The notes below the pieces were generated by a model that did no database searches, was not told the DNA's origin, and saw only the letters and a program-made list of their open reading frames with translations. The translations under genes and the position numbers were made by a program. Source: Lumbricus rubellus (Eukaryota; Annelida; Clitellata; Crassiclitellata; Lumbricidae). Taken from it: 64,000 nucleotides of DNA. How positions within the stretch are numbered: position 1 is the stretch's first letter; the number at the start of each line of letters is the position of its first letter. Positions 21,871 through 63,660 of this stretch are shown piece by piece. The stretch lies in NCBI GenBank assembly GCA_945859605.1, contig OX243825.1, forward strand, positions 3,247,174 to 3,311,173, in the 5' to 3' direction.

Positions 21871-32276
<10,406 letters not shown>

Positions 32277-39544: not shown

Positions 39545-39599
39545 TTCTGGTGGCAGCGGTGGTACGAAGAAGAAGAGGATTCTGACACCAGCGAACAGG

Positions 39600-40140
39600 A
39601 CGGAACGATCAGTCGGTCAAGCGGAGGAACAACCGACGGACGCGGTGATCAACACGAACGTCACCAGGGACCAAGGAATCCAGGACGGAACGATCAGCCG
39701 GTCAAGCGGGGGAACAACCGACGGACGCGGTGATCGACACGCACGTCATCAGGGACCAAGGGATCCAGGACGGAGCGATCAGCCGGTCAATCGGAGGAAC
39801 AACCGACGGACGCGGTGATCGACACGCACGTCATCAGGGACCAAGGGATCCAGGACGGAACGATCAGCCGGTCAATCGGAGGAACAACCGACGGACGCGG
39901 TGATCGACACGCACGTCATCAGGGACCAAGGAATCCAGGACGGAACGATCAGCCGGTCAAGCGGAGGAACAACCGACGGACGCGGTGATCAACACGCACG
40001 TCATCAGGGACCAAGGGATCCAGGACGGAACGATCAGCCGGTCAAGCGGAGGAACAACCGACGGACGCGGTGATCAACACGCACGTCATCAGGGACCAAG
40101 GGATCCAGGACGGAACGATCAGCCGGTCAAGCGGGAGTAG
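39600..40140 (+). repeat. 85-bp tandem repeat in the LTR element leader
   Basis: About 6.4 copies; each has GGAACGATCAGCCGGTCAAG, GACGGACGCGGTGATC and CACGTCATCAGGGACCAAGG. Copies differ by only a few bases. Confidence 0.95.
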
Positions 40141-40542
40141 CCGACGGAGCAACCAATCAACCGGAACCAGCGCAGCAGATGACCAGAGGATCCAGCATCG
40201 AAGCAGGCACAGGTAAGACCTTCGTTCGTTGGCTGTGTTCAATTGCTTGGTCAGGTGTGTCAATCGCGGGGCAGGATTGGCTGCGAAGAAACTGTTTTCT
40301 GTTGATTCCGAATGAACTCGTGATTTTATGCTTTTGAATAACTGTCTGGGTGTACGCGAGAATTGTTCTCTATTGATGCTGTCTTAACCTTTGACTTTGT
40401 ATTCCTAAGTGACTATCATGGTTGATTGCCAATGAGATTGATTTTGATTTATATCTGGAGATTTGTGTTTTCTGAGCAACGGTCTGGTTGAAGTCCACTC
40501 TATCTTTTTTTTATTTGAGCACACCCCTTTTCTTCTGTTCTC

Positions 40543-43241: not shown

Positions 43242-43384
43242 TAATGGTGCCGTGACCAGGATCGTCATCAATTATTCCGGCCGACGAAAAGGTTTTTTTT
43301 CTGACATTTTGTCGGGACGTTGACGCGGAAGCTATTGGGGCGTGGCGTGGGTGGAAGGACGGTGAAGGTCATTCCTGTACTCGT

Positions 43385-43995
43385 CAACTCAGCAGTGTTT
43401 TGGCTGAACTGTTTCTGCTGGTGAATTTGTTGCCGATGAACGTTGGAACAGTGGTCTACCGTGCAGTGCAGGAATAATTTCAATTCAGCAGTGTTTTGGC
43501 TGAACTGTTTCTGCTGGTGAATGTGTTGCCGATGAACGTTGGAACAGTGGTCTACCGTGCAGTGCAGGAATAATTTCAACTCAGCAGTGTTTTGGCTGAA
43601 CTGTTTCTGCTGGTGAATTTGTTGCCGATGAACGTTGGAACAGTGGTCTACCGTGCAATGCAGGAATAATTTCAACTCAGCAGTGTTTTGGCTGAACTGT
43701 TTCTGCTGGTGAATTTGTTGCCGATGAACGTTGGAACAGTGGTCTACCGTGCAGTGCAGGAATAATTTCAACTCAGCAGTGTTTTGGCTGAACTGTTTCT
43801 GCTGGTGAATTTGTTGCCGATGAACGTTGGAACAGTGGTCTACCGTGCGGTGCAGGAATAATTTCAACTCAGCTGTGATTTGGCTGAACTTTTTCTGCGG
43901 GTGAATCTGTTGCCGATGAACGTTGGAACAGTGGACTATCGTGCAGTGCAGGAATAATTTCCACTCAGCAGTGTTTTGGCTGAACTTTTTCTGCG
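43385..43995 (+). repeat. 97-bp tandem repeat in the leader
   Basis: About six copies with CAGCAGTGTTTTGGCTGAAC, TGTTGCCGATGAACGTTGGA and CAGTGGTCTACCGTGCAGTG. A 310-codon open frame on the - strand across it is a product of the repeat (97 is 1 mod 3, yet no stops occur in the used frames). Confidence 0.92.
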
Positions 43996-44823
43996 GGTGA
44001 ACTTGTTGCCGATCACCGTTGGAGCCAGAGAAGTCTGTACTGGTCAGGACTGGAGACAGGACAGGGACAATTGCAACTCTACAGGGGTTTGGATTGTATT
44101 GTTTTCTCTTACTTAATTGTATGGTTTGTTGGGTGTTTGTGTAGGTTAACAAACATGGAAGAAGAGAAGGAAAAATTAAAGTTCTTTGGTGTTGATGCAC
44201 TAGTTGGTTTGCTTGTTAAGGCAGGGGCGGATGTTGATGCTGTTCTGGCTTTGAATAAGGAACAACTTATTGACTTGTGTTTGGTAGCAAAGGGTTTAAA
44301 GGCGAAAGTTTTACCTAAGAAAGTGGTAAAAGAGATGACAATGGTTGAAATGATGCAAATGATGATGGAACGAGAGGATAAGATGCGGAGGGAACAGATG
44401 GAAATTATGATGGAACGCGAGGAAAAGGTGAGGGAAGAACAGATGGAAATTATGATGCAACGTCAGTAAATGAAGAGGAAAAAGCGGAAGAAAGGAGGCA
44501 GGAGCAAAGAGAGTGGCAGGCAAAATTGTTGGGTAGCCAAAATCTTAGTCAAGAGAAGGCTAGAGATGAGGCGAAGAAAGAACGAGAAAGGAAGACTAAG
44601 GAAGAAGAGTCTACAGGGGCTAGGATCAAAAAATTTGGGGACATACTGAAAAACGTATTACCTAAAATGCCCACTGAAGATATTGAGTTGCCGCTGTATC
44701 TAGAATCAATAGAGAGCTTGTTTGCTATGTATTTGGTTCCAGAGGATTTAAAATGTGCTTTATTGATGCCTTTCTTGTCTGAAAAAGCTAAAAAGTTGAT
44801 TCGTAGGTTACCAGTGGATCAAC

Positions 44824-47431: not shown

Positions 47432-49627
47432 TCATTTGCTCTTAATCATCATTCGCGCTGCTCGAAGTCCGCCGCTTGTCACCCAGCCACCGGTGTGATG
47501 AGCCCATGCAAACAATTCGCCAGTGTATGCGCAGGCGAAACAGCATTGGTAACATGCGTTGAACCACCATCCTCCGCTGCGGAGCTGGGCGCAATTACCT
47601 GACGATGTGTCGTGATCGGCATCATAAGTTGAGAATTTCATTCCATTGTTGCGGTATTGGGATGGCACTGAACTATCCAGAAGCGAATCTCCTGCATTTC
47701 CACTGTATCCTGATACACGAAGGACGTATCCGTTGCTTTCAGAACCGATTGTGAAGGTGGAATATTCCGCGTAGAACCATTTACCGCTTTTATCGGGTTG
47801 TACCTGCAAGAAAGATGTATAAAATCTTACATGATTGTGCCAAAACCAGCCCGGAACCATAATGGGTGTTAAGCTCCTTAGCGTTAACCCCGAGTAAAAC
47901 TCGGGCCGGGAATTCGATGTAAAAACGGTTAACCCCCGAGCCACACTCGGTATGCATATATATACACTAGCATACCCGACCACGCGTTGCTGTGGCTGAA
48001 AAAGCATCAAACCATCCGTCCCCACCTCCCCTCCTCCTCCACTTTTAGATGTGGATATGGAGAAGGATAGCCTATATGGGAGATGTGAGCTGGACGGAGC
48101 GAGTGACGAGTGAAGATATGGGAGATGTGAGCTGGACGGAGCGAGTGACGAGTGAAGAGTACGTGCCGCAAAGAGTAGGAGAAAAAAGATAACTGCAGAT
48201 GACAACTGACAAGGGAGATTGGAGGGGGGAAAAGAAAGAGATGAAGACCGAGACAGATGATGCTGGGATGGATGATGACTGACGGATACAACGAACTGAA
48301 GAGAAAAGCACAGCGAAGAGAAGAATGGCGTCATTGGAATTTGAAACCTACTGAGGGGCAGAGAACTTAAAGAAGAGAAGAAGGCCTATGTGCTTCAAAT
48401 TCAATCTTCAATTTCTTCGACCTGCCAAAAAGTTCCCATGACTCCGACGCGACCTGCCGAAATTTTAGAGCTGGCGCCGCCACTGGCTAGGACAAAGTCT
48501 TATCTCGAAAAAAGTGATCATGGTGTCGGTTAAGATAAGATAAGATAAGAATATTCTTTAATATACCAATTGCTATCCGCATTTTGGTGTACAGACATGG
48601 TATAATAAACAAACGCACATAATTTCTATATCCAATCAATGTCAAAATGTTTTCAAATAGCACAAAATCCTAGGTCCAAAATCCAATATAAATTTTTCTT
48701 TAAAATAATAATTGTCTTTTATAATGACCAACAATTTATGCTGCACCTTGGTTTATAAATATGGTATTACATTCAAATATGATAGAGCATTCTCATCAAA
48801 AACCATTTCCTAGTTACCGTCGCGTTTCAAACCAAGCATCTACCCATCAGTCCAGGGATCGAAGCGTGGCCATTATAGTTCATTATTGTACGTACAATAT
48901 TGTTCTACATTATTATTATAATATATACCTGGTACATGAATATTTTTAATAAATCAAGACGGGAGTTATTGTCCTGGTTATTCTAGGGGTTATTGTCCGG
49001 ATGTTTTTTTCTCATGGGTTGTTGTTCTAGCCTATAACCGCCTTTCAGGAAGCGATAAAAGATAAATAAAATTTACTTAGTCCAACTTAAACAATAATCA
49101 TTCTTCAGCTCTGAACCTTAATCGTTAAATTCAAAAAAATAATCTAAAGCTAAGCGAAGGGAACCATATTAATCACTAGCGTCGCGTAGTTTTGAGTCAA
49201 GTGATGCGAGTAGTATAGGAGATCATTTTCTAAACCAGTCAAAACAGCAATTAAGGTAATTGAAAGTGACAGGTCTGTATGTTATGGTCCAGGAAAATGA
49301 TTAATTACTTCTTTGATCTATAGAGGAAACAGGCTGGTCTAGGAAAATGGCTAATTACTTCTTTGATGTATATAGGAAACTGCCTGGTCTAGGAAAATGA
49401 TTAATTACTTCATTCATGTCACTGGTCCAGGAAATAATGCAATAGCAAACCCATAATTATTGTTTTGATTTACGCCCTTTGATGATGACGAATAACATTT
49501 CTTTCATCTACTCTGATGGCTGCGTTTCCCTTACAGGCAAACCAACATTCCTGTCTGTCTGTCTGTCTGTCTGCCTACCCGTCTGTCTGTCTGTCTGTCT
49601 GTCTGTCTGTGTGTCTGTCTGTCTGCC

Positions 49628-49682
<55 letters not shown>

Positions 49683-52600
49683 GTGACCTCTTTGTATACA
49701 GCAGACGTGTACAATAAATTATTATTCCTTCACAAGGCATTGTGCCCCCATAGCTCCACATTAGGCAACGCCTGCACTCTTGGACACTGTGTAATAAATG
49801 AAAATATGTGTCTGTCTGTAACAACAATAATTCTGCATTTCTTAACATTTGTAAAAAATCAGCCAAAATTTCGACATTTTTAAAAATCCCACAAATTCAA
49901 ACATTTATTATACACCAGTTCATGTATGCGACACCGCTCTGTCTTTGCAAGCACAGCGAAAATCTTTCTCATAGCCAATATCATTATACTAGTACACACA
50001 TATTGTGCATTTTTGAAGTCTTTATACTTCACTACAATATTTTCTGCTTGACAGAGTAGTTGAAATTTATATTTCCACACATACTGGACTCTGACTTTAC
50101 ATTCGCATTTGTACGTCTATGAAGTCTTTATACTTCACTGCAGTATTTTCTACTTAACAGATGCAATGTACTATGGTGCGCATAACTCTATAGCAACAAT
50201 AAGCGAGATATTGGACAATTCTATACTCCCGCAATCTTTAAAAATCGAATAATTTCAAACATTTATTATACAACTTTCCATGTGTACGACATTCGGAAGC
50301 ACCACGGCGTCAGCGGGAGCAGCAGTGACAACAGCGGTGGCAGCGACAGCGCACCGACCTCCTCTTCTTCCTTCAAGTCTTCCACTCCTCCTCGATTTGC
50401 AGTGTGTTGGACTTAGAAAATCTCGCCCTTGCAGAGCATTCGGACTTAGAAAATATCAGAAAATTTCGATCTCGCAGCATGTCAGACTTAGAAAAATTTT
50501 GATTTTGCCATGTGTTGGACTTAGAAATCTCGTCCTTGCGGAAAATTTGGACTTAGAAAATTTCGATCTTGCAGTGCGAACTTAGAAAAATTTTGATTTT
50601 GCCATGTGTTGGACTTAGAAATCTCGTCCTTGCGGAGCATTTGGACTTATAGTCTAAGCGGTACAAACCAGATTCTGGTTAGTAAACTGCACTTTTTGAA
50701 CACGGGTTGCCGCTTGGCACAGTTGTAGCTGGGACCCAGGAGATCATTTTAAGAAGGGGAGGCAATCGAAATTTCTCTTAGAATTCAAGATGGCGGCCTT
50801 TTTCAAAATTGCCGCCTGAGGCTGAGAAATTCTTATAAATCATCGTATCATCTCGTGTATGGTATCGTTTCTACATATTTCTGACTCGAATAACATGAAT
50901 CTAAGGTCAAAATCAACATTAGACATCAAAATTAAGCCAAAACAGGTGTTTTTACATTTAAAAACAGCAAAATTGCTATTAAAAATTAACAAATAGTTCT
51001 TCATTTCCATTGCTTGTTTTCCATTTTTCCTGTGGCATAGATCTATTCCCAGTGATGTAGTCCTAAAAAATGAAGTGGGGGGAACGCTCTTTATGAAGTG
51101 GGGGGACGCTCTTTATAATAATAATATTAATAGTAGTATTACTATTAATATTCCATTATCCCTGAAAAAAAGTGGGAGGACGGCGTCCCCCCGCGTCCCC
51201 CCCACTACACCACTGTCTATTCCCTTCTACATCTGGATGGTTTATCACAGTTTTGATTATTATGCATCGGAACCATTGGAATTGTCCTTAGAATTCAAAA
51301 TGGCGGCTTCATAAAAATGGCGTCCTGCGTCAAAGATATTCATACAAATTGTCAAGACATGTCGCGTTTAGTGTTGTTTGCATATATAATTTTTGACTCG
51401 AAGAACACCAAACTAAGGTCAAAATCATCATAGGACATCAATATAAAGCCAATACAGTCAAAGTTTTGCAAAACAGCAAAACTATTTCTATAAAAACAAA
51501 AATTTCGTTTGTTTTCGTTGCTTTTCTTCTGTTTTTCGTGACATTTTTCCTCATTAATCTGGGTGGTTTTTGCGATTATGATTATGACGACAACAACGAC
51601 GTCATCATCCGATTCGATCCATCTCCCTTGACAACAGCATCCGGTCCTGCACCGTTACGGATGAGGGATTCGTTGATGACGAGATAGAAGAAGGCTTGCG
51701 TCTGACGAACAGTTGGACCGTGATCACGGACCGTGACCTCCACGAACAACGTCAGATTTAGACATGCTGGTGGTGGTAGTGGTGGTGGTGGTGGTGGTGA
51801 TGGTGGTAGTGTTGATGGAGATGACAAGTGGTATCTGGTCGATCTGAAGGAGGGTGCGGTGGCGGTGGTCAGCGGCGTCTACAAGATGCTGAGAGATGTA
51901 ACAGGAGAGACGAGCATTGTCTTCTGCATCAGCATCTCTTACAATGACTGTCATCAGTCGACCATGACTATTCCTCCTCCTCCAGATCTCCTCCGTCATG
52001 CATGAAGGCCACTGTCTCCGTTGTCTTTGATTTTGGACAGATAACCTGGGGTCATTGTCATTCATGTCGATCACGTACGTGAAGCGTCACAATCACCGAT
52101 GACGTCACTTTCGGCGGCGACCAAGAACATGACCTTCGAAATGGGATTCAGACGGTCGTGCCAAGAACCACCTCGCGAGCATGCGCCATAACCCAGTAAA
52201 TCGACATATATTCAGGGTCGAGCGATTCGCCCTTGTAGATGAATCCGGTTGTGGCATTGTTGCTAAACGTAGCAGAATCGTTGAAACCATTGTTCCTCTT
52301 TGAGTCCTGGCTTGATATGCAATAGACGACGCCTGCGTACTCAATCGTATCCGCATAAGTTGCCATGATGTATCATACCTGCATTCCGATTGCTGGTTTT
52401 CGCGGACACCGAAGCTGTAGCTGAACTCAGTGAACCGTGGAATCTCGTCGTCAATGTCTTTGATGGTCAACAAAAGCAGTGCTGATGACATGACGTCAGG
52501 GATGGCGTCTCAAGGCCAAAGGCCAAGATGGCTACTTTGACCCTGGGCGTGACCTCCCGATCTAGACTGTCCTTGGCCGTGACGATGTACTGATCGTAGT

Positions 52601-55600
52601 CGATTGGGTCCAGCAAAAAGACCCCGTCACCGTCCAGTGAACACGTTGTGTGTCCGTTAGCCTACAGTCATTGACTCTGAGATGAGCGATGAAGGTTCCA
52701 TTGAGAGCATCCTCAGACACCTCGGCCACTCTAGACTCTGTCAAGACATTGACCGTCACAATTGGTCTATTGTCATTGACGTCGGTGACGTGTATGATGA
52801 CGCTCGCTTCGTCAGTCAATCGGACGTCATGACTTGAGTCAACGGCAAGCATCTGCAATTGATGAAGAGGTGCAGATTCAAAGTCCAGCCTCCTAAGCAG
52901 CTCATTTGCCCGGTTTCGTTATTTATGCTCTCGTCTCTCCTATTATAACATCTCTCAGCGTTTTGTAGACGCCGCTGACCACCACCACCGCACCCTCCTT
53001 CAGATCGACCAGATACCACTTGTCATCTCCATCAACACTACCACCATCACCACCACCACCACCACTACCACCACCAGCATGTCTAAATCTGACGTTGTTC
53101 GTGGAGGTCACGGTCCGTGATCACGGTCCAACTGTTCGTCAGACGTAAGCCTTCTTCTATCTCGTCATCAACGAATCCCTCATCCGTAACGGTGCAGGAC
53201 CGGATGCTGTTGTCAAGGGAGATGGATCGAATCGGATGATGACGTCGTTGTTGTCGTCATCATCATAATCGCAAAAACCACCCAGATTAATGAGGAAAAA
53301 TGTCACGAAAAACAGAAGAAAAGCAACGAAAACAAACGAAATTTTTGTTTTTATAGAAATAGTTTTGCTGTTTTGCAAAACTTTGACTGTATTGGCTTTA
53401 TATTGATGTCCTATGATGATTTTGACCTTAGTTTGGTGTTCTTCGAGTCAAAAATCATATATGCAAACAACACTAAACGCGACATGTCTTGACAATTTGT
53501 ATGAATATCTTTGACGCAGGACGCCATTTTTATGAAGCCGCCATTTTGAATTCTAAGGACAATTCCAATGGTTCCGATGCATAATAATCAAAACTGTGAT
53601 AAACCATCCAGATGTAGAAGGGAATAGATCTATGCCACAGGAAAAATGGAAAACAAGCAATGGAAATGAAGAACTATTTGTTAATTTTTAATAGCAATTT
53701 TGCTGTTTTTAAATGTAAAAACACCTGTTTTGGCTTAATTTTGATGTCTAATGTTGATTTTGACCTTAGATTCATGTTATTCGAGTCAGAAATATGTAGA
53801 AACGATACCATACACGAGATGATACGATGATTTATAAGAATTTCTCAGCCTCAGGCGGCAATTTTGAAAAAGGCCGCCATCTTGAATTCTAAGGGAAATT
53901 TCGATTGCCTCCCCTTCTTAAAATGATCTCCTGGGTCCCAGCTACAACTGTGCCAAGCGGCAACCCGTGTTCAAAAAGTGCAGTTTACTTTTGTGTACCG
54001 CCTGGACTATTAGAAAATTTCGATCTTGCAGTGCGAACTTAGAAAAATTTTGATTTTGACATGTGTTGGACTTAGAAAAATTCGAAATTTCATGGCGTTC
54101 GGACTTAGAATATTTCGACCTTGCAGAGCATTCGGACTTAGATATTTTTACTCTTGTAGTGTGTGGGACTTAGAAATTTTGCGAACTAAAATCTTGCTGA
54201 ACTTAGAAAATTTTACTCTTGCAGTGTGTTGGACTTAGAAAATTTCGACCTTGCAGTGAATTTGGACTTAGAAAAAATCGGACTTAGAAAAATTCGACCT
54301 TGCAGAGCATTCGGACATTGAAAATTTCCATCTTGCAGTGCGAACTTAGAAAGTTTTGTAAACTAAAATCTTGTTGGACTTAGAAAATTTTACTCTTGTA
54401 GTGTGTTGGACTTAGAAAATTTCAACATTGCAGGGAATTTGGACTTAGAAAAATTTGGTCTTATAAAAAAATTCGACCTTGCAGAGCATTCGGACATAGA
54501 AAATTTTGATCTTGCAGTGCGAACTTAGAAAGTTTGTGAACTAAAATCTTGTTGGACTTAGAAATTTTTACTCTTGTAGCGTTTGGCACTTAGAAAATTT
54601 TACTCTTGAGAAAATCTCGTCCTTGCAGAGCATTCGGACTTAGAAAATATCAGAAAATTTCGATCTCGCAGCATGTCAGACTTAGAAAAATTTTGATTTT
54701 GCCATGTGTTGGACTTAGAAAATCTCGACCTTGCAGAGCATTTGGACTTAGAAAATTTCGATATTGTAGTGTGTCGGACTTAGAAACATTTTGATTTTTG
54801 TCGTATGTTGGACTTAGAAATCTCGTCCTTGCGGAGCATTTGGACTTAGAAAATTTCGATCTTGCAGTGCGGACTTAGAAAGTTTTTGCTCCTGTAGTGT
54901 GTCGGACTTAGAAAAATTCGAAATTTCATGGCGTTCGGACTTAGAATATTTCGACCTTGCAAAGCATTCGGACTTAGATATTTTTACTCTTGTAGTGTGT
55001 GGGACTTAGAAATTTTGCGAACTAAAATCTTGCTGAACTTAGAAAATTTTACTCTTGTAGTGTGTTGGACTTAGAAAATTTCGACCTTGCAGTGAATTTG
55101 GACTTAGAAAAAATCGGACTTAGAAAAATTCGACCTTGCAGAGCATTCGGACATTGAAAATTTCCATCTTGCAGTGCGAACTTAGAAAGTTTGTGAACTA
55201 AAATCTTGTTGGATTTAGAAATTTTTACTCTTGCAGCATTTGGGACTTAGAAAATTTTACTCTTGTAGTGTGTTGAACTTAGAGAATTTCGACCTTGCAG
55301 TGAATTTGAACTTATAAAAATTCGGTCTTGCAGAGCATTCGGACTTAGAAATTTTTACTCTTGTAGCGTTTGGGACTTAGAAATTTTGCGAACTAAAATC
55401 TTGCTGAACTTAGAAAATTTTACTCTTGTAGTGTGTTGAACTTAGAGAATTTCGACCTTGCAGTGAATTTGAACTTATAAAAATTCGACCTTGCAAAGCA
55501 TTCGGACTTAGATATTTTTACTCTTGTAGTGTGTGGGACTTAGAAATTTTGCGAACTAAAATCTTGCTGAACTTAGAAAATTTTACTCTTGTAGTGTGTT

Positions 55601-58600
55601 GGACTTAGAAAATTTCGACCTTGCAGTGAATTTGGACTTAGAAAAAATCGGACTTAGAAAAATTCGATCTTGCAGAGCATTCGGACATTGAAAATTTCCA
55701 TCTTGCAGTGCGAACTTAGAAAGTTTGTGAACTAAAATCTTGTTGGACTTAGAAATTTTTACTCTTGCAGCATTTGGGACTTAGAAAATTTTACTCTTGT
55801 AGTGTGTTGAACTTAGAGAATTTCGACCTTGCAGTGAATTTGAACTTATAAAAATTCGGTCTTGCAGAGCATTCGGACTTAGAAATTTTTACTCTTGTAG
55901 CGTTTGGGACTTAGAAAATTTTACTCTTGTAGTGTGTTGAACTTAGAGAATTTCAACCTTGCAATGAATTTGGACTTAGAAAATATTGGCCTTTCAATGT
56001 AAGACACGAACTTTTGCCATTGCACGAAGTCAAACTTGTAATTTACGAAGTATAAACACAGAAAATGTATGTAGAATGTGTTAAGTTGGAGAAATATGGA
56101 GTGGGCGAAGCGCATATTCTTAGATTTGTGGAAACAATGTCGTACATTATTTGCAACATGGTAACAATTTTGGTAAATTACGAACTTAGAGAGCGAAGAA
56201 ATACAACTTAGCATTACAAACAGCAAATTGCAAGACTTTTAAGGGTTGAGAGTGTTCAGTTGGTGAAGTAAAGGAGTGGGGAGAGTGTTCCACTCTTAAG
56301 TTTGTGGAAAACAAGACTCTTCATTATTTGTGCCATGTCAGCAATTTTGATAAATTACGAACTTAGAGAGCGGAGAAACGCAACTTAGGGTTACAAGCAG
56401 CAAATTACAAGTCATTTTTAGAGTTGAGAGCGTTAAGTTGGTGAAGTAAAGTGGTGAGGAGGGTGTGTCATTCTTAAGGTTTGGGCAAACAAAGGTGTTC
56501 AATATATGTAACATGTCATCAATTTTGACAAAATACGAAAATATTGTACGAAGAAACACGAATTAGGGTTACAAGTGGCAACTTGCAAGACGTTTAGGGT
56601 TAGCAGGCGTGCACAACTTAGCAGAAATCTACATTCGTCAGCTCTGAAAACGCTAAGTCCGAAATGACATGTTACATATATTGAACACCTTTGTTTGCCC
56701 AAACCTTAACCTTTATTGCCCCAACGTTCCCAAAGTGGAACATATTATTAAAAAAATTGCAGAGACGGTAAAACCTACTGTAAGTCATCTTATTGATATT
56801 CATTCACCTGGCCAGTGATGGGTGCATGTTTATTTACTTTTGTTTCAAGTATTTTGCGGCTAATAAAATAGTTATTTTGATGCAAATTTGGCAAAAAATG
56901 ACGTTTTTGCAAAAAAATATTGAAAATTATTTTTTGGAGCAAATGCATGATAATTAATTGCTTTTATTGTACATTTGGATTGAACTGTGTCTATTCTGTC
57001 TAGTTATGGTCAATTTTTTAAATAGTAGTGCTCCACGAGTGAGCAACGCAGCTGATTTTAGATATGTTCCACTTTGGGAACGTTGGGTCACTTTCACTAG
57101 TTGAAACAATACTTTTACGTTCTATTGAAATTTGCCCTGCTCGCTACAAAATTTACGTTGATTGTAGTTTTCATTCTAATATGAACATGAATATTATTAT
57201 TATTAATTATAGTATCATTATTATTTGATCCATTATTATTATTTTAGGCCTTTTAAAAATTATTTTATTATATAGTAGCCTACTGGGTTTTTTCGGGATT
57301 TGAGGAGCTTGAAAAGTTGCGTTAGGCCTTCTGCAGCGCGATGTTTTCAACGTAAGCTATATTTAAATTCTGATTAGCCTATATAATTAGGCCTACTCCG
57401 TTTTCCCGCAGGGTGGGTTGTGTGGGGACAGGGTATGGCGGGGTGGGGTGAGGATTTTGGGATGGTAGGGTGCGGTGCGGTGAGACCAAAGGTGAAAACC
57501 AAGTGAAACATTATTTTTTGCTATGAATTTCATGTGTTGAGCCTTTCGCGGAGTGGAGTCATGGAGGGGTGGGAGATGGGGTGGTTAGGCCTGAATTAGA
57601 GTGGAGGTGGGTGGGGTCGGACGGTTGTGGTATGGGGTTGTAGTGTGCTGGGTGGGGTCAAAGTGGGAAGGAAGGGCCAAGGTGAAAAACAAAGTAAAGA
57701 ATTGTTTTTTATGAATTTCCTATGTTGCGCATTTTAAGAGGTGGGTCGGAGTGGAGGGTGGGAATGGGGTGGAGTGGGCCGGAGTAGGGTGGAGGTGGGT
57801 TATAGATGGACGGTTGGAGTATGTGGTTGAAGTGGGCCGTGTGCGTTCGAAGTGAAGAGGAGGTTTGACCGAGAAACCTTACTCCAGACATGTGGGACTG
57901 TGTGGGGGCAAATTTGGGGGAGGTGGATTAGGGTTAGGTTGGGTGGGTGGGGTGGGTGGGGATTGCTGTGGGACTTTGTGGGATACGGTTAGCGTAGTGG
58001 TTCGTTGGGACCGGTATGAAAACAATTTGAAACATTATTTTTCATAAATTTCATATGTGAGCATTTCATGGGGTTTGGTGGGGTGGAAGGGTGGGGCGGA
58101 GTGGAATTTTGAGGATGGGGTGTGTAAAATTTGGGGTAGAGGTGGAGTATTAACCTTTGTGATTCACACCTTTTAAAAAAATGTATATATGCATCATTTG
58201 GAAAAAGTCATACTTTTACTATCGCTTGATGCCTATACTAGTCAAAGTGACCCAACGTTCCACTTTGGGAACATATATATAATTTTTATATGAACAGAAT
58301 TTTTTTTTTTTAACTAATTGCCTCTATCTAGGTGGTAAACTGTATAATAACAAAGTTCAGAAGTGATAGAATGACTATTTCTGTGTCTGGGAAGATAAAG
58401 GTTAAGAATGACACACCCTCCTCACCACTTTACTTCACCAACTTAACGCTCTCAACTCTAAAAATGACTTGTAATTTGCTGCTTGTAACCCTAAGTTGCG
58501 TTTCTCCGCTCTCTAAGTTCGTAATTTATCAAAATTGCTGACATGGCACAAATAATGAAGAGTCTTGTTTTCCACAAACTTAAGAGTGGAACACTCTCCC

Positions 58601-61415
58601 CACTCCTTTACTTCACCAACTGAACACTCTCAACCCTTAAAAGTCTTGCAATTTGCTGTTTGTAATGCTAAGTTGTATTTCTTCGCTCTCTAAGTTCGTA
58701 ATTTACCAAAATTGTTACCATGTTGCAAATAATGTACGACATTGTTTCCACAAATCTAAGAATATGCGCTTCGCCCACTCCATATTTCTCCAACTTAACA
58801 CATTCTACATACATTTTCTGTGTTTATACTTCGTAAATTACAAGTTTGACTTCGTGCAATGGCAAAAGTTCGTGTCTTACATTGAAAGGCCAATATTTTC
58901 TAAGTCCAAATTCATTGCAAGGTTGAAATTCTCTAAGTTCAACACACTACAAGAGTAAAATTTTCTAAGTCCCAAACGCTACAAGAGTAAAAATTTCTAA
59001 GTCCGAATGCTCTGCAAGACCGAATTTTTATAAGTTCATATTCACTGCAAGGTCGAAATTCTCTAAGTTCAACACACTACAAGAGTAAAATTTTCTAAGT
59101 CCCAAATGCTGCAAGAGTAAAAATTTCTAAGTCCAACAAGATTTTAGTTCACAAACTTTCTAAGTTCGCACTGCAAGATCAAAATTTTCTATGTCCGAAT
59201 GCTCTGCAAGGTCGAATTTTTTCTAAGCCCAAATTTTTCTAAGTCCAAATTCACTGCAAGGTTGAAATTTTCTAAGTCCAACACACTACAAGAGTAACAT
59301 TTTCTAAGTCCAACAAGATTTTAGTTCACAAAACTTTCTAAGTTCGCACTGCAAGATGGAAATTTTCAATGTCCGAGTGCTCTGCAAGGTCGAATTTTTC
59401 TAAGTCCGATTTTTTCTAAGTCCAAATTCACTGCAAGGTCGAAATTTTCTAAGTCCAACACACTACAAGAGTAAAATTTTCTAAGTTCAGCAAGATTTTA
59501 GTTCGCAAAATTTCTAAGTCCCACACACTACAAGAGTAAAAATATCTAAGTCCGAATGCTTTGCAAGGTCGAAATATTCTAAGTCCGAACGCCATGAAAT
59601 TTCGAATTTTTCTAAGTCCGACACACTACAGGAGCAAAAACTTTCTAAGTCCGCACTGCAAGATCGAAATTTTCTAAGTCCAAATGCTCCGCAAGGACGA
59701 GATTTCTAAGTCCAACATACGACAAAAATCAAAATGTTTCTAAGTCCGACACACTACAATATCGAAATTTTCTAAGTCCAAATGCTCTGCAAGGTCGAGA
59801 TTTTCTAAGTCCAACACATGGCAAAATCAAAATTTTTCTAAGTCTGACATGCTGCGAGATCGAAATTTTCTGATATTTTCTAAGTCCGAATGCTCTGCAA
59901 GGACGAGATTTTCTCAAGAGTAAAATTTTCTAAGTGCCAAACGCTACAAGAGTAAAAATTTCTAAGTCCAACAAGATTTTAGTTCACAAACTTTCTAAGT
60001 TCGCACTGCAAGATCAAAATTTTCTATGTCCGAATGCTCTGCAAGGTCGAATTTTTTTATAAGACCAAATTTTTCTAAGTCCAAATTCCCTGCAATGTTG
60101 AAATTTTCTAAGTCCAACACACTACAAGAGTAAAATTTTCTAAGTCCAACAAGATTTTAGTTTACAAAACTTTCTAAGTTCGCACTGCAAGATGGAAATT
60201 TTCAATGTCCGAATGCTCTGCAAGGTCGAATTTTTCTAAGTCCGATTTTTTCTAAGTCCAAATTCACTGCAAGGTCGAAATTTTCTAAGTCCAACACACT
60301 GCAAGAGTAAAATTTTCTAAGTTCAGCAAGATTTTAGTTCGCAAAATTTCTAAGTCCCACACACTACAAGAGTAAAAATATCTAAGTCCGAATGCTCTGC
60401 AAGGTCGAAATATTCTAAGTCCGAACGCCATGAAATTTCGAATTTTTCTAAGTCCAACACATGTCAAAATCAAAATTTTTCTAAGTTCGCACTGCAAGAT
60501 CGAAATTTTCTAAGTCCAAATGCTCCGCAAGGACGAGATTTCTAAGTCCAACACATGGCAAAATCAAAATTTTTCTAAGTCTGACATGCTGCGAGATCGA
60601 AATTTTCTGATATTTTCTAAGTCCGAATGCTCTGCAAGGGCGAGATTTTCTAAGTCCAACACACTGCAAATCGAGGAGGAGTGGAAGACTTGAAGGAAGA
60701 AGAGGAGGTCGGTGCGCTGTCGCTGCCACCGCTGTTGTCACTGCTGCTCCCGCTGACGCCGTGGTGCTTCCGAATGTCGTACACATGGAAAGTTGTATAA
60801 TAAATGTTTGAAATTATTCGATTTTTAAAGATTGCGGGAGTATAGAATTGTCCAATATCTCGCTTATTGTTGCTATAGAGTTATGCGCACCATAGTACAT
60901 TGCATCTGTTAAGCAGAAAATACTGCAGTGAAGTATAAAGACTTCATAGACGTACAAATGCGAATGTAAAGTCAGAGTCCAGTATGTGTGGAAATATAAA
61001 TTTCAACTACTCTGTCAAGCAGAAAATATTGTAGTGAAGTATAAAGACTTCAAAAATGCACAATATGTGTGTACTAGTATAATGATATTGGCTATGAGAA
61101 AGATTTTCGCTGTGCTTGCAAAGACAGAGCGGTGTCGCATACATGAACTGGTGTATAATAAATGTTTGAATTTGTGGGATTTTTAAAAATGTCGAAATTT
61201 TGGCTGATTTTTTACAAATGTTAAGAAATGCAGAATTATTGTTGTTACAGACAGACACATATTTTCATTTATTACACAGTGTCCAAGAGTGCAGGCGTTG
61301 CCTAATGTGGAGCTATGGGGGCACAATGCCTTGTGAAGGAATAATAATTTATTGTACACGTCTGCTGTATACAAAGAGGTCACACACACAGACAGACAGA
61401 CAGACAGACAGACAC

Positions 61416-61469
<54 letters not shown>

Positions 61470-62603
61470 GGGCAGGCAGACAGACAGACAGACAGACAGG
61501 AATGTTGGTTTGCCTGTAAGGGAAACGCAGCCATCAGAGTAGATGAAAGAAATGTTATTCGTCATCATCAAAGGGCGTAAATCAAAACAATAATTATGGG
61601 TTTGCTATTGCATTATTTCCTGGACCAGTGACATGAAAGAAGTAATTAATCATTTTCCTAGACCAGGCAGTTTCCTATATACATCAAAGAAGTAATTAGC
61701 CATTTTCCTAGACCAGCCTGTTTCCTATATAGATCAAAGAAGTAATTAATCATTTTCCTGGACCATAACATACAGACCTGTCACTTTCAATTAGCTTAAT
61801 TGCTGTTTTGACTGGTTTAGAAAATGATCTCCTATACTACTGATGCGGGTGATGGACAATAAAGCAACTGCCATTCATTGGCGGAGACCTAGGGGGACAG
61901 AGAGGACAGTCCCCCCAATAAAAGTGTTGGGGACGGCCCATGCATTGGTCCTTCCCACCAATCGTTGAGCGTCAAGACTAAAAATTGTTCAAAAATTTTA
62001 GGCAGTGAAAATATACTTATTTTGACTTTTTTTTGTCAGAAGACTTTAAAAAGGTTAACTTTCAACTTTTTGGCAGTGAAAATGTACATTTTCTTGACTT
62101 TTGGGCCAGACGACTAAAAAAGTTCATCAACTTTTTTGGCGGTGAAAATAAATAGAAATCTTTCTCGATTTTTGTCCAGATGACTAAAACAAGCTCATCA
62201 ACTTTTTTGGGCGGTGCAGAAAGTTTAAAAATTCTCCTTAGAAAAAGATTGTCAGAAATTTTCGTCCGTCAAAACATCTCGCGTCTTTCTTTCGGCCACT
62301 CGTTCGCCCCCCCTCCCAATCTCCGCCCAGGTCTCCACCCATGCTACCATTCTTCTACTGTAATTATTAAGCAAGTTCAAAAACTCCATTATTGAGGTAT
62401 AATTTTTATAAATACCTCCACGCGAAGAGAATAGGTGGCGCTCGTAGTCAGAAGATGGACTTTCTCATTTCCGAGCCAAACTTCGTCTCCTTCAGCATCT
62501 CCAAATCCATTCTTGTATTCGGTCCAGTTTCGGTTGAAGTTCTCAGACTTGTCAAAACGTTTCAGTATGGTTATCCAGTCGGTTACAGTTGAGAGAGAAG
62601 CTC
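47432..62603 (-). CDS. Fibrinogen-related domain protein, copy 2 (partial)
   Basis: Exons 62603-62416 and 47803-47432 (stop TGA 47434-47432), with AG/GT borders and phase 0 between them at the same place as copy 1. Shows [32 protein letters not shown], then [45 protein letters not shown] and [12 protein letters not shown]. The upstream exons (leader, PAN domain, linker) would lie beyond 62603; I do not find them before the window end. Exon and intron sequence aligns with copy 1 from about 47296 to 49209 and from 61841 to about 63100, so the pair is a tandem duplication. The intron is inflated from about 2.3 kb to 14.6 kb by a fold-back element. Both exons remain open, so the gene may still work if the palindrome is tolerated. 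Confidence 0.82.
47960..48060. repeat. Copy of the CTAGC(G/A)TACCCG motif next to (TA)n
   Basis: ACTAGCATACCCGACCACGC follows TATATACAC and is the counterpart of 22856 in copy 1, an older insertion shared by both paralogues. Confidence 0.6.
48533..48812 (-). mobile_element. SINE-like insertion with (TTATC)n tail
   Basis: Absent from copy 1 (at 23527, GTGTCGGTTACCGTCGCG is continuous). Starts AGATAAGATAAGATAAG on +, i.e. a TTATC tail on the - strand, with GTTA repeated at both sides (48529-48532, 48813-48816). Confidence 0.75.
49551..49682. repeat. (CTGT)n inside the left arm
   Basis: Pure CTGT units with a few substitutions. The right arm has the shorter inverted counterpart at 61388-61500. 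Confidence 0.95.
50400..50649 (+). repeat. 33-bp array, first part of left arm
   Basis: Units of GGACTTAGAAAATTTCGACC then TTGCAGAGCATTC. The array is split by the 50650-54009 insertion and resumes at 54010. Confidence 0.92.
51050..51215. mobile_element. hAT MITE, 166 bp, in the arm of the TIR element
   Basis: Exact 8-bp duplication TCTATTCC (51042-51049, 51216-51223). Ends CAGTGATGTAGT / ACTACACCACTG. The opposite arm has the empty site (reverse complement of about 53615-53635: GATCTATTCCCTTCTAC). Confidence 0.95.
51500..52885 (-). pseudogene. Captured (proto)cadherin ectodomain fragment
   Basis: Reading the - strand with several frame changes gives cadherin-repeat signatures in order: [96 protein letters not shown] and [20 protein letters not shown]. 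DxNDNxP and DADxxxN are the known calcium-binding linker motifs. It is continuous without introns, like many large-exon protocadherins. Frameshifts and a (CCA)n tract disrupt it, so no intact protein is predicted. Part is duplicated, inverted, at 52926-53400. Confidence 0.85.
52926..53400 (+). pseudogene. Inverted duplicate of part of the cadherin fragment (right arm)
   Basis: Matches the reverse complement of about 51470-51920, with small differences (e.g. one fewer GGT unit and GTTACATC against TATAACATC). Confidence 0.88.
54010..55985 (+). repeat. 33-bp array, left arm continued
   Basis: About 60 degenerate units of the GGACTTAGAAAATTTCGACC type, with higher-order blocks of about 290-480 bp (e.g. 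54960-55320 against 55490-55880). Confidence 0.92.
55985..56475 (-). repeat. About 180-bp modules near the palindrome centre, left arm
   Basis: Two to three repeats containing AATTACGAACTTAGAGAGCG, AGTTGGTGAAGTAAAG and CACTCTTAAG. Inverted counterpart at 58405-58900. Open frames of 70-100 codons occur but repeat with the module. Confidence 0.85.
56710..58401. mobile_element. piggyBac-like element in the right arm, 1.69 kb
   Basis: TTAA on both sides (56706-56709, 58402-58405), ends CCTTTA / TAAAGG. The left arm keeps a single TTAA at the mirror position (56474-56477, CATTCTTAAGGTTTGGG). The palindromic block GTTCCCAAAGTGGAAC occurs three times (56727, 57067, 58255), the last two together with GTGACCCAACG in opposite orientation. 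A GGGTGG-rich block fills 57400-58160. No transposase. Confidence 0.8.
58860..60665 (-). repeat. 33-bp array, right arm
   Basis: Reverse complement of the left array; about 180 bp or more shorter because higher-order blocks differ in number. Confidence 0.92.
61388..61500. repeat. (ACAG)n inside the right arm
   Basis: Counterpart of 49551-49682, shorter and with different interruptions. Confidence 0.95.
61876..62343. mobile_element. Non-autonomous TIR element, 468 bp
   Basis: Absent from copy 1. 8-bp duplication CTGCCATT (61868-61875) and CTACCATT (62344-62351). Ends CATTGGCGGAGACCT and AGGTCTCCACCCATG. An 8-bp TSD allows hAT or P-type; the CAT start is atypical for hAT. It lies 36 bp from the fold-back element. 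Confidence 0.8.
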
Positions 62604-63660
62604 CTGTGCAAGAAGAGGACCGTAAAAGAAAGTGATTGTGTTGCAATAATAATCCAACGTCGTGGATTCAGATTCTAGCGAACATGATATCATGATATGG
62701 AGAGAAACTCTTCAAGAAGAAAGTCGAACTCACCCCTAAGTCCCTAACCACTCCACATAAATGTTACGGTGTTAGAAAGTCACATGCATAATTAAGGTGG
62801 AGTGAAAAAAGAAAAAAATTTGATTCTGAACGGAATAGAACCAATTCACTGCCTTTTGGTATAGTTAGTTATCATGCAAAATATTTCTTTAAAATTCGCT
62901 CTTGAAGATGTGCCCCCAATGAGCTTTAAAATTTGAAAATTGTTAAGAAATTTAAGAAATTAAAAAATTCATAAATTTATAAAATATTGCAGGTCATCCT
63001 TGCCAGATTGAAGTCATGAAGACTAATGTCTTTCTTCAATACCAAAGCAAAATCTCAGTCGGAGCCTTAAAATCATAAAATTCGCTTTAACCTATTTAAT
63101 GGGGATAACTGATCAAAAATGTGCATAGTTTTGGACTGCTGGCCTGTGCTGGGATACGCATGTTTAATTTTTTTAAATTTTTTTAAATATTTTTTACAAT
63201 TTTAAAATAACGAAACATTTTCAAACAAATTGCAATGTAAAAAATTACATTTTCACTCCACTCTATTGGAGATGTGGCTTGAGAAGGAGAGATGTGGATC
63301 AAAGCTAGCACCGAGATTGCGGAAAGTGACGTCAGAAGCAAAGTATGCTTATTAGATGAAGCATTAATGGATAGACGCATTGAAGGGTCATGGATTTTCT
63401 TGATTTGGTCTGGAAGGCATAAGATCATAAATTAGGCCTACCTTTTGGAGAGATTGAGGCAACTACAACTACAACTACTACAACTACAACCACAAATACT
63501 TCTACTACTTATAGGCTACTACTACAAGGTCTACTACATGAATTACCTTTTTATATGACATCATTATCTAAGACCCAGTGCATAAACGCTTCTGAATTTG
63601 TTTGACTTTTGTGAGCCGTCGTATTTTTGCAGTTTAGATATAGGCCTAATAATAATAATG
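62604..63660. other. FReD copy 2 intron, upstream part
   Basis: Aligns with copy 1 to about 63100 (e.g. CATGCATAATTAAGGTGGAG against 24959). I see no PAN or linker exon. A CTACAACTACAACTA run lies at 63460-63500. Confidence 0.5.

What the first reader, a model, noticed from the sequence alone, without database searches (positions are those of the whole stretch)
49210..61840. A 12.6-kb palindromic fold-back element with its own built-in empty sites
Both arms, the 8-bp target duplication and the uninterrupted target in the paralogous intron can be read directly. Two later insertions (50650-54009 in the left arm, 56710-58401 in the right arm) each have an intact empty site at the mirror position, so the order of events is fixed: palindrome first, then the TIR element and the piggyBac-like element. 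The arms total about 3.5-3.9 kb each with a loop of only about 150 bp, which should give a very long hairpin RNA if the FReD copy 2 intron is transcribed.
Basis: seen in the sequence. Interest (0 to 1): 0.88.

Follow-up and report, generated by a model that had tools for sequence, protein, structure and literature searches.

The report
Giant fold-back transposon inside an intron
A 12.6-kb mirror-image piece of mobile DNA has jumped into an intron of one copy of a duplicated animal gene, and two other mobile elements landed in its arms; it is a long and well-preserved example of a known kind of jumping DNA called a foldback element.

Summary
Window 49209/49210-61840/61841 is a palindrome with a 144-bp loop (56520-56663). 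Over 3480 aligned arm columns, 3462 are identical (99.48%). The arms differ in length by 16, 94 and 358 bp, all in repeats, and by two nested insertions. Each insertion has a single-copy target at the mirror position: TTA for 50650-54009, TTAA for 56710-58401. The paralogous fibrinogen-domain gene intron has the uninterrupted site.

Correction: the 8-bp duplication is imperfect (TGATGCGA/TGATGCGG). A perfect 7-bp (TGATGCG) or 6-bp (GATGCG) reading is at least as good, so TSD length, and with it superfamily, is open.

The anatomy (outer domain, 32-33-bp tandem arrays, inner domain, tiny loop, no coding seen) is that of a non-autonomous foldback transposon. The arms (3.5-3.95 kb) exceed the longest quoted in the passages I read for Tetris (1,735 bp) and Galileo (1,260 bp). 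The nested TTA element is itself a fold-back carrying a cadherin gene fragment. I could not look for further copies in the host: that search did not complete ten times. Hairpin RNA remains inference. New member of a known kind.

The parts
49209..61841 (.). Whole fold-back element (E1) with its nested inserts; ends AGTAGTATAGGAGATCATTTT inverted at both sides (49210-61840 if the first base is not counted)
49202..49209 (+). Left target-site copy TGATGCGA; perfect with the right copy over GATGCG (49203-49208) or TGATGCG (49202-49208)
61841..61848 (+). Right target-site copy TGATGCGG
24430..24446 (+). Uninterrupted target in the paralogous intron (AGTGATGCGGGTGACGG)
49210..50396 (+). Left arm, outer domain: terminal end, 2.5 copies of a 50-bp repeat near the tip, TCTG microsatellite, further sequence (inner border approximate)
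50397..56000 (+). Left arm, tandem-repeat domain (32-33-bp units in higher-order 65/98/163/177-bp repeats, about 2.2 kb in all), interrupted by E2; borders approximate
56001..56519 (+). Left arm, inner domain (about 178-bp repeats)
56520..56663 (.). Loop, 144 bp
56664..61840 (-). Right arm (mirror of the left), interrupted by E3
54010..55145 (+). Longest uninterrupted perfect duplex: 1136 bp, pairs with 60513-59378
50650..54009 (+). Nested element E2: TTA on both sides, ends TAGTCTAAGCGGTACA / TAGTCCAGGCGGTACA, itself a fold-back (1065 of 1076 aligned arm columns identical)
52562..52918 (-). Cadherin/protocadherin-like fragment inside E2
56710..58401 (+). Nested element E3: TTAA on both sides, ends CCTTTAT; piggyBac-like by TSD and end
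62389..62667 (-). Frame holding the upstream exon of fibrinogen-domain gene copy 2 (Pfam Fibrinogen_C, profile 41-97)
47432..48385 (-). Frame holding the next exon of copy 2 (Fibrinogen_C, profile 99-190)

Best explanation
It is a non-autonomous foldback DNA transposon. A transposase supplied in trans by an unseen partner recognised the inverted ends (A)GTAGTATAGGAGATCATTTT and inserted the palindrome into an intron of one of two paralogous fibrinogen-domain genes, duplicating 6-8 bp of target. Inside each arm a 32-33-bp unit has grown by tandem duplication, which lengthens the arms and makes them differ in length. A TTA-target element and a TTAA-target element inserted into one arm each after the palindrome had formed. 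Shown: palindrome, repeat domains, target duplication, empty site, nested insertions with mirror empty sites. Inferred: mobilisation in trans, and the possibility that pre-mRNA of the host gene folds into a long hairpin.
For: Arms 3462 of 3480 columns identical with a 144-bp loop. Target duplication and uninterrupted site in the paralogous intron. Fibrinogen_C frames on the minus strand either side of the element. Foldback-type domain order and tandem arrays; the 94-bp length difference is an extra repeat (68 of 70 aligned bases match the next copy) and the 358-bp one is array sequence (300 of 349 and 240 of 249 aligned bases match the arrays on its two sides). Mirror single-copy targets for both inserts. 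No Pfam family at E up to 10 in the 3 arm reading frames scanned. The domain order and TSD range resemble those of Tetris and Tm1 in the passages I read.
Against: No second copy of the element was seen: no further terminal 20-mer in the window, and 0 exact matches in viral contigs and genome contigs, which are not animal genomes. The host genome search did not complete. TSD length is ambiguous and no transposase is known, so the superfamily is unassigned.
Confidence: 0.9

Rival explanations
1. Assembly or library artefact: a fold-back chimeric read or mis-joined inverted copy.
For: Fold-back artefacts in long reads exist (PMC12870357, title and start of abstract seen in the listing). The arms are 99.5% identical.
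Against: Arms differ by 18 substitutions in 3480 columns, three repeat-length differences and two different insertions, each with its own target duplication and a single target in the mirror arm. Intron sequence flanks both sides and matches the paralogue across the site.
Confidence: 0.03
2. Local inverted segmental duplication rather than transposition.
For: Inverted duplications with short spacers also give palindromes (general knowledge).
Against: The whole palindrome is absent from the paralogous intron, whose flanks are alike at 232 of 257 aligned bases on the left and 294 of 335 further to the right (that stretch includes exon), and it is bounded by terminal repeats and a short target duplication. 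A local inverted duplication would leave one arm as resident sequence.
Confidence: 0.04
3. The composite (palindrome plus nested E2 and/or E3) transposed into the intron as a unit, so the nested insertions happened elsewhere. This is a variant of the best explanation, not exclusive of it.
For: Mirror empty sites date the inserts only against formation of the palindrome, not against arrival in this intron.
Against: Nothing tested here excludes it; a 12.6-kb load is large for such an element (general knowledge).
Confidence: 0.2
4. Arm identity reflects gene conversion between arms rather than youth (also compatible with the best explanation).
For: A mismatch-free stretch of 1536 columns among 3350 columns with 9 mismatches (p = 0.038 by random placement; the test was chosen afterwards, and 130 columns with 9 further mismatches at an array edge were dropped before it).
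Against: Weak p-value; the length differences and both inserts have not been homogenised.
Confidence: 0.2

Closest known systems
Tetris (foldback element of Drosophila virilis; PMC4079207, passages read)
   Same: Lacks conserved open reading frames, long inverted repeats built of flanking and further domains, 8-10-bp target duplications, autonomous partner not found, internal tandem repeats
   Different: Tetris repeats reach 1,735 bp and its amplified repeat is called TIR-220; here about 3.5-3.95 kb and 32-33-bp units. No sequence link was tested.
Tm1 Mutator/foldback family of root-knot nematodes (PMC3169594, passages read)
   Same: Composite inverted repeats with tandem units of variable number, target duplications, empty paralogous locus, a nested insertion in one element
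   Different: 13-15-bp units, most often 9-bp target duplications (45 of 53 with 8-10 bp), asymmetric terminal motifs, family includes transposase-coding members; the two repeats of an element average 93.15% identity, though 5 of 61 elements have 100%, against 99.5% here. Repeat length was not in the passages I saw.
Galileo (P superfamily; PMC3573991, passages read)
   Same: Foldback-like long inverted repeats with internal tandem repeats, non-autonomous two-repeat forms, 7-bp target duplication (7 bp is one reading here)
   Different: Longest repeats quoted there are 1,260/1,241 bp at 95.2% identity; P-type ends or transposase were not tested here
FB elements of D. melanogaster and TU elements of sea urchin (anatomy recalled; only the mention of fly and sea urchin foldbacks seen)
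   Same: Long inverted repeats with short tandem units and small loop (recalled)
   Different: No sequence comparison was made

Membership tests
Foldback-type DNA transposon (structural class) | Very long terminal inverted repeats with little or no middle | tested here: met
Foldback-type DNA transposon (structural class) | Tandemly repeated units inside the arms, copy number varying between arms | tested here: met
Foldback-type DNA transposon (structural class) | Target-site duplication and empty site | tested here: met
   Perfect at 6 or 7 bp, 7 of 8 at 8 bp; empty site in the paralogous intron
Foldback-type DNA transposon (structural class) | Several copies at different places in the genome | not tested
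   Host genome search did not complete
Mutator superfamily | 8-10-bp target duplication | tested here: inconclusive
   8 bp matches at 7 of 8
Mutator superfamily | Related transposase in an autonomous partner | not testable with these tools
   Host genome search unanswered; no partner seen
P superfamily (Galileo-like) | 7-bp target duplication | tested here: inconclusive
   7 bp is perfect, but then the terminal repeats differ by one base at the tip
P superfamily (Galileo-like) | P-type transposase in a partner | not testable with these tools
   Host genome search unanswered
PIF/Harbinger (nested E2) | 3-bp target duplication, commonly TTA | tested here: met
   TTA on both sides; 3 bp stated in the start of the abstract of PMC2213677 (listing), TTA recalled
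PIF/Harbinger (nested E2) | Related transposase or end sequence | not tested
   Ends not compared with any library
piggyBac (nested E3) | TTAA target duplication and CC terminal bases (recalled) | tested here: met
   TTAA on both sides, both ends CCTTTAT
piggyBac (nested E3) | Related transposase | not tested
   No frame of E3 was scanned

The most novel reading that the evidence does not exclude
The element belongs to a foldback family outside the Mutator and P lineages, with a 6-bp target duplication (GATGCG, perfect, with the longest perfect terminal repeat), and its kb-long perfect duplex in the intron of a transcribed fibrinogen-domain gene makes it a source of long double-stranded RNA.
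Probability: 0.12. Interest if true: 0.6.

Novelty: new member of a known kind. Interest (0 to 1): 0.4.

Why it matters
It is a clean natural record of stacked transposition: a paralogous empty site dates the palindrome against a gene duplication, and the mirror arms serve as empty sites for later elements. Arms of 3.5-3.95 kb at 99.5% identity are about twice the longest quoted in the Tetris and Galileo passages I read, and a perfect 1.1-kb duplex in an intron is a plausible source of long double-stranded RNA and of genome instability.

Tried and rejected
Artefact and local inverted duplication were considered and judged unlikely (see rivals). The terminal 20-mer was sought in viral contigs and genome contigs, and a 26-base array unit in viral contigs: 0 matches each. 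Shorter patterns gave 2 (17 bases of the tip) and 3 (18 bases of the E2 end) viral contigs; BLAST of the window against all five stretches gave 0 hits at E 1e-5, so I take them as chance word matches (expected number not computed).

The protein search with the cadherin fragment gave no hit at E 1e-3 among 11 candidates, although PDB chains match it (93 distinct sequences at E up to 0.1, 60 shown); that tool only compares proteins of similar length. Three other E2 frames had no cadherin match in Pfam (one had weak unrelated matches at E 0.2 and 0.5), and one of them, 51724-52086, had only three chance-level PDB matches, T-cell receptor chains at E 0.43-0.58.

This does not name the host, which stays an unidentified animal. 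Seven paper searches were run and passages of three papers read; I make no claim that this element is absent from print.

Full report
What is there. Self-comparison of the window gives a large inverted repeat between 49209 and 61841. Aligning the two arms base by base, with the two nested inserts left out, gives 3480 aligned columns of which 3462 are identical (99.48%); 472 left-arm and 2 right-arm positions have no partner (from the blocks and the ranges used). The unpaired left positions are 16 bp in a TCTG microsatellite, 94 and 358 bp in the tandem arrays, and 4 bp at the edge of insert E2. The loop is 56520-56663, 144 bp. The longest stretch of perfect uninterrupted duplex is 1136 bp, 54010-55145 with 60513-59378. 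The terminal 20-mer occurs at both ends and nowhere else in the window, against 0.01 expected.

Anatomy. From outside in, each arm has a roughly 1.2-kb outer domain with 2.5 copies of a 50-bp repeat near the tip and the microsatellite, then about 1.8 kb (right) to 2.2 kb (left) of a 32-33-bp unit arranged in higher-order repeats of 65 to 177 bp, then an inner domain of about 178-bp repeats. The 94-bp length difference is an extra repeat (68 of 70 aligned bases like its neighbour), and the 358-bp difference is array sequence too. No Pfam family was found in the three arm reading frames that I scanned; other frames were not scanned.

Setting. On the minus strand, fibrinogen C-terminal domain frames lie on both sides: 62389-62667 matches profile positions 41-97 and 47432-48385 matches 99-190. 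The element therefore lies in the intron between them. A paralogous copy at about 21.7-24.8 kb has the same intron without the element: the left flanks agree at 232 of 257 aligned bases, and a stretch further right that includes exon agrees at 294 of 335. The uninterrupted site reads AGTGATGCGGGTGACGG. So the palindrome arrived after the gene duplication. If introns and arms change at the same rate and arms are not converted, arm divergence (0.5%) is roughly twenty times less than that of the left intron flank (about 10%).

Target duplication. TGATGCG (7 bp) is perfect but leaves the terminal repeats unequal by one base. GATGCG (6 bp) is perfect and adds one matching base to the terminal repeat. 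Joined flanks under the 6- and 7-bp readings give the GTGATGCGGGTGA core of the paralogous site exactly, and under the 8-bp reading with one base different. I lean to 6 or 7 bp on parsimony. The passages I read give 8-10 bp for Tetris, mostly 9 for Tm1 and 7 for Galileo. Only other copies can decide, and the genome search did not answer in ten attempts (last).

Nested insertions. E2 (50650-54009) has TTA on both sides and E3 (56710-58401) has TTAA; the mirror arms hold a single TTA and a single TTAA. The palindrome therefore predates both, unless conversion erased an insert from one arm. This does not show that they landed after the palindrome reached this intron, nor which came first. E2 is itself a fold-back: 1065 of 1076 aligned columns of its arms match, and it carries a minus-strand fragment matching cadherins (Pfam Cadherin E 4.3e-6, 27.5 bits against a cut-off of 28.8; best solved chain CELSR1 at 5.3e-21, then protocadherin-19 at 2.4e-15). 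The large protein search found no relative of that fragment at E 1e-3. By its TTA target E2 resembles PIF/Harbinger elements; by its TTAA target and CC ends E3 resembles piggyBac elements. Neither was tested further.

How it likely works. The anatomy is that of a non-autonomous foldback transposon moved by a transposase made elsewhere, with arms that lengthen by tandem duplication. The host gene's transcript, if made, would contain both arms and could fold into a very long hairpin. No transcript or small-RNA evidence was available, so this stays inference.

Youth or conversion. Of 18 mismatches, 9 fall in 130 columns at an array edge; with those columns dropped, the longest mismatch-free run is 1536 of 3350 columns (p = 0.038, test chosen afterwards). 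This is too weak to claim conversion.

Comparison. In the passages I read, inverted repeats reach 1,735 bp in Tetris and 1,260 bp in Galileo. Tm1 elements average 93.15% identity between their repeats, with 5 of 61 at 100%. This element is longer than the first two and nearly as little diverged as the least diverged Tm1 copies, but not different in kind. Foldback form arises from different transposon lineages, as the Tm1 and Tetris papers say in those passages, so shape alone does not give the superfamily.

Limits. The host is unknown; the protein hits of the fibrinogen-domain gene reach 49% over 98% of the query, or 53% over 72%, and are taxonomically mixed. Copy number, superfamily, transcription and polymorphism are untested.

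Noticed in passing
52562-52918 (minus), within 50650-54009: The nested TTA-target element is a fold-back of its own that carries a cadherin/protocadherin-like gene fragment (best solved match CELSR1, E 5.3e-21): apparent capture of host gene sequence by a DNA transposon, inside the arm of another fold-back.
   Followed up: partly
61876-62343: A 468-bp insert starting 27 bp beyond the palindrome's right target copy, absent from the paralogous intron, with ends CATTGGCGGAGACC/CATGGGTGGAGACC and flanks CTGCCATT/CTACCATT (paralogue CTACCATT): hAT-like by TSD length and CA ends (recalled).
   Followed up: partly
49217-49229, 50738-50750, 53920-53932, 61821-61833: The 13-mer AGGAGATCATTTT is shared exactly by both tips of the outer palindrome and both subterminal parts of nested E2; 4 places (two mirror pairs) against 0.26 expected in shuffles at up to 1 mismatch. 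Common ancestry of ends, a binding motif, or chance.
   Followed up: no
43384-44023 and 39596-40148: Head-to-tail repeats with periods of about 96 and 85 bp, 91-96% alike; the first lies within one 315-codon open frame on the minus strand (43268-44215).
   Followed up: no
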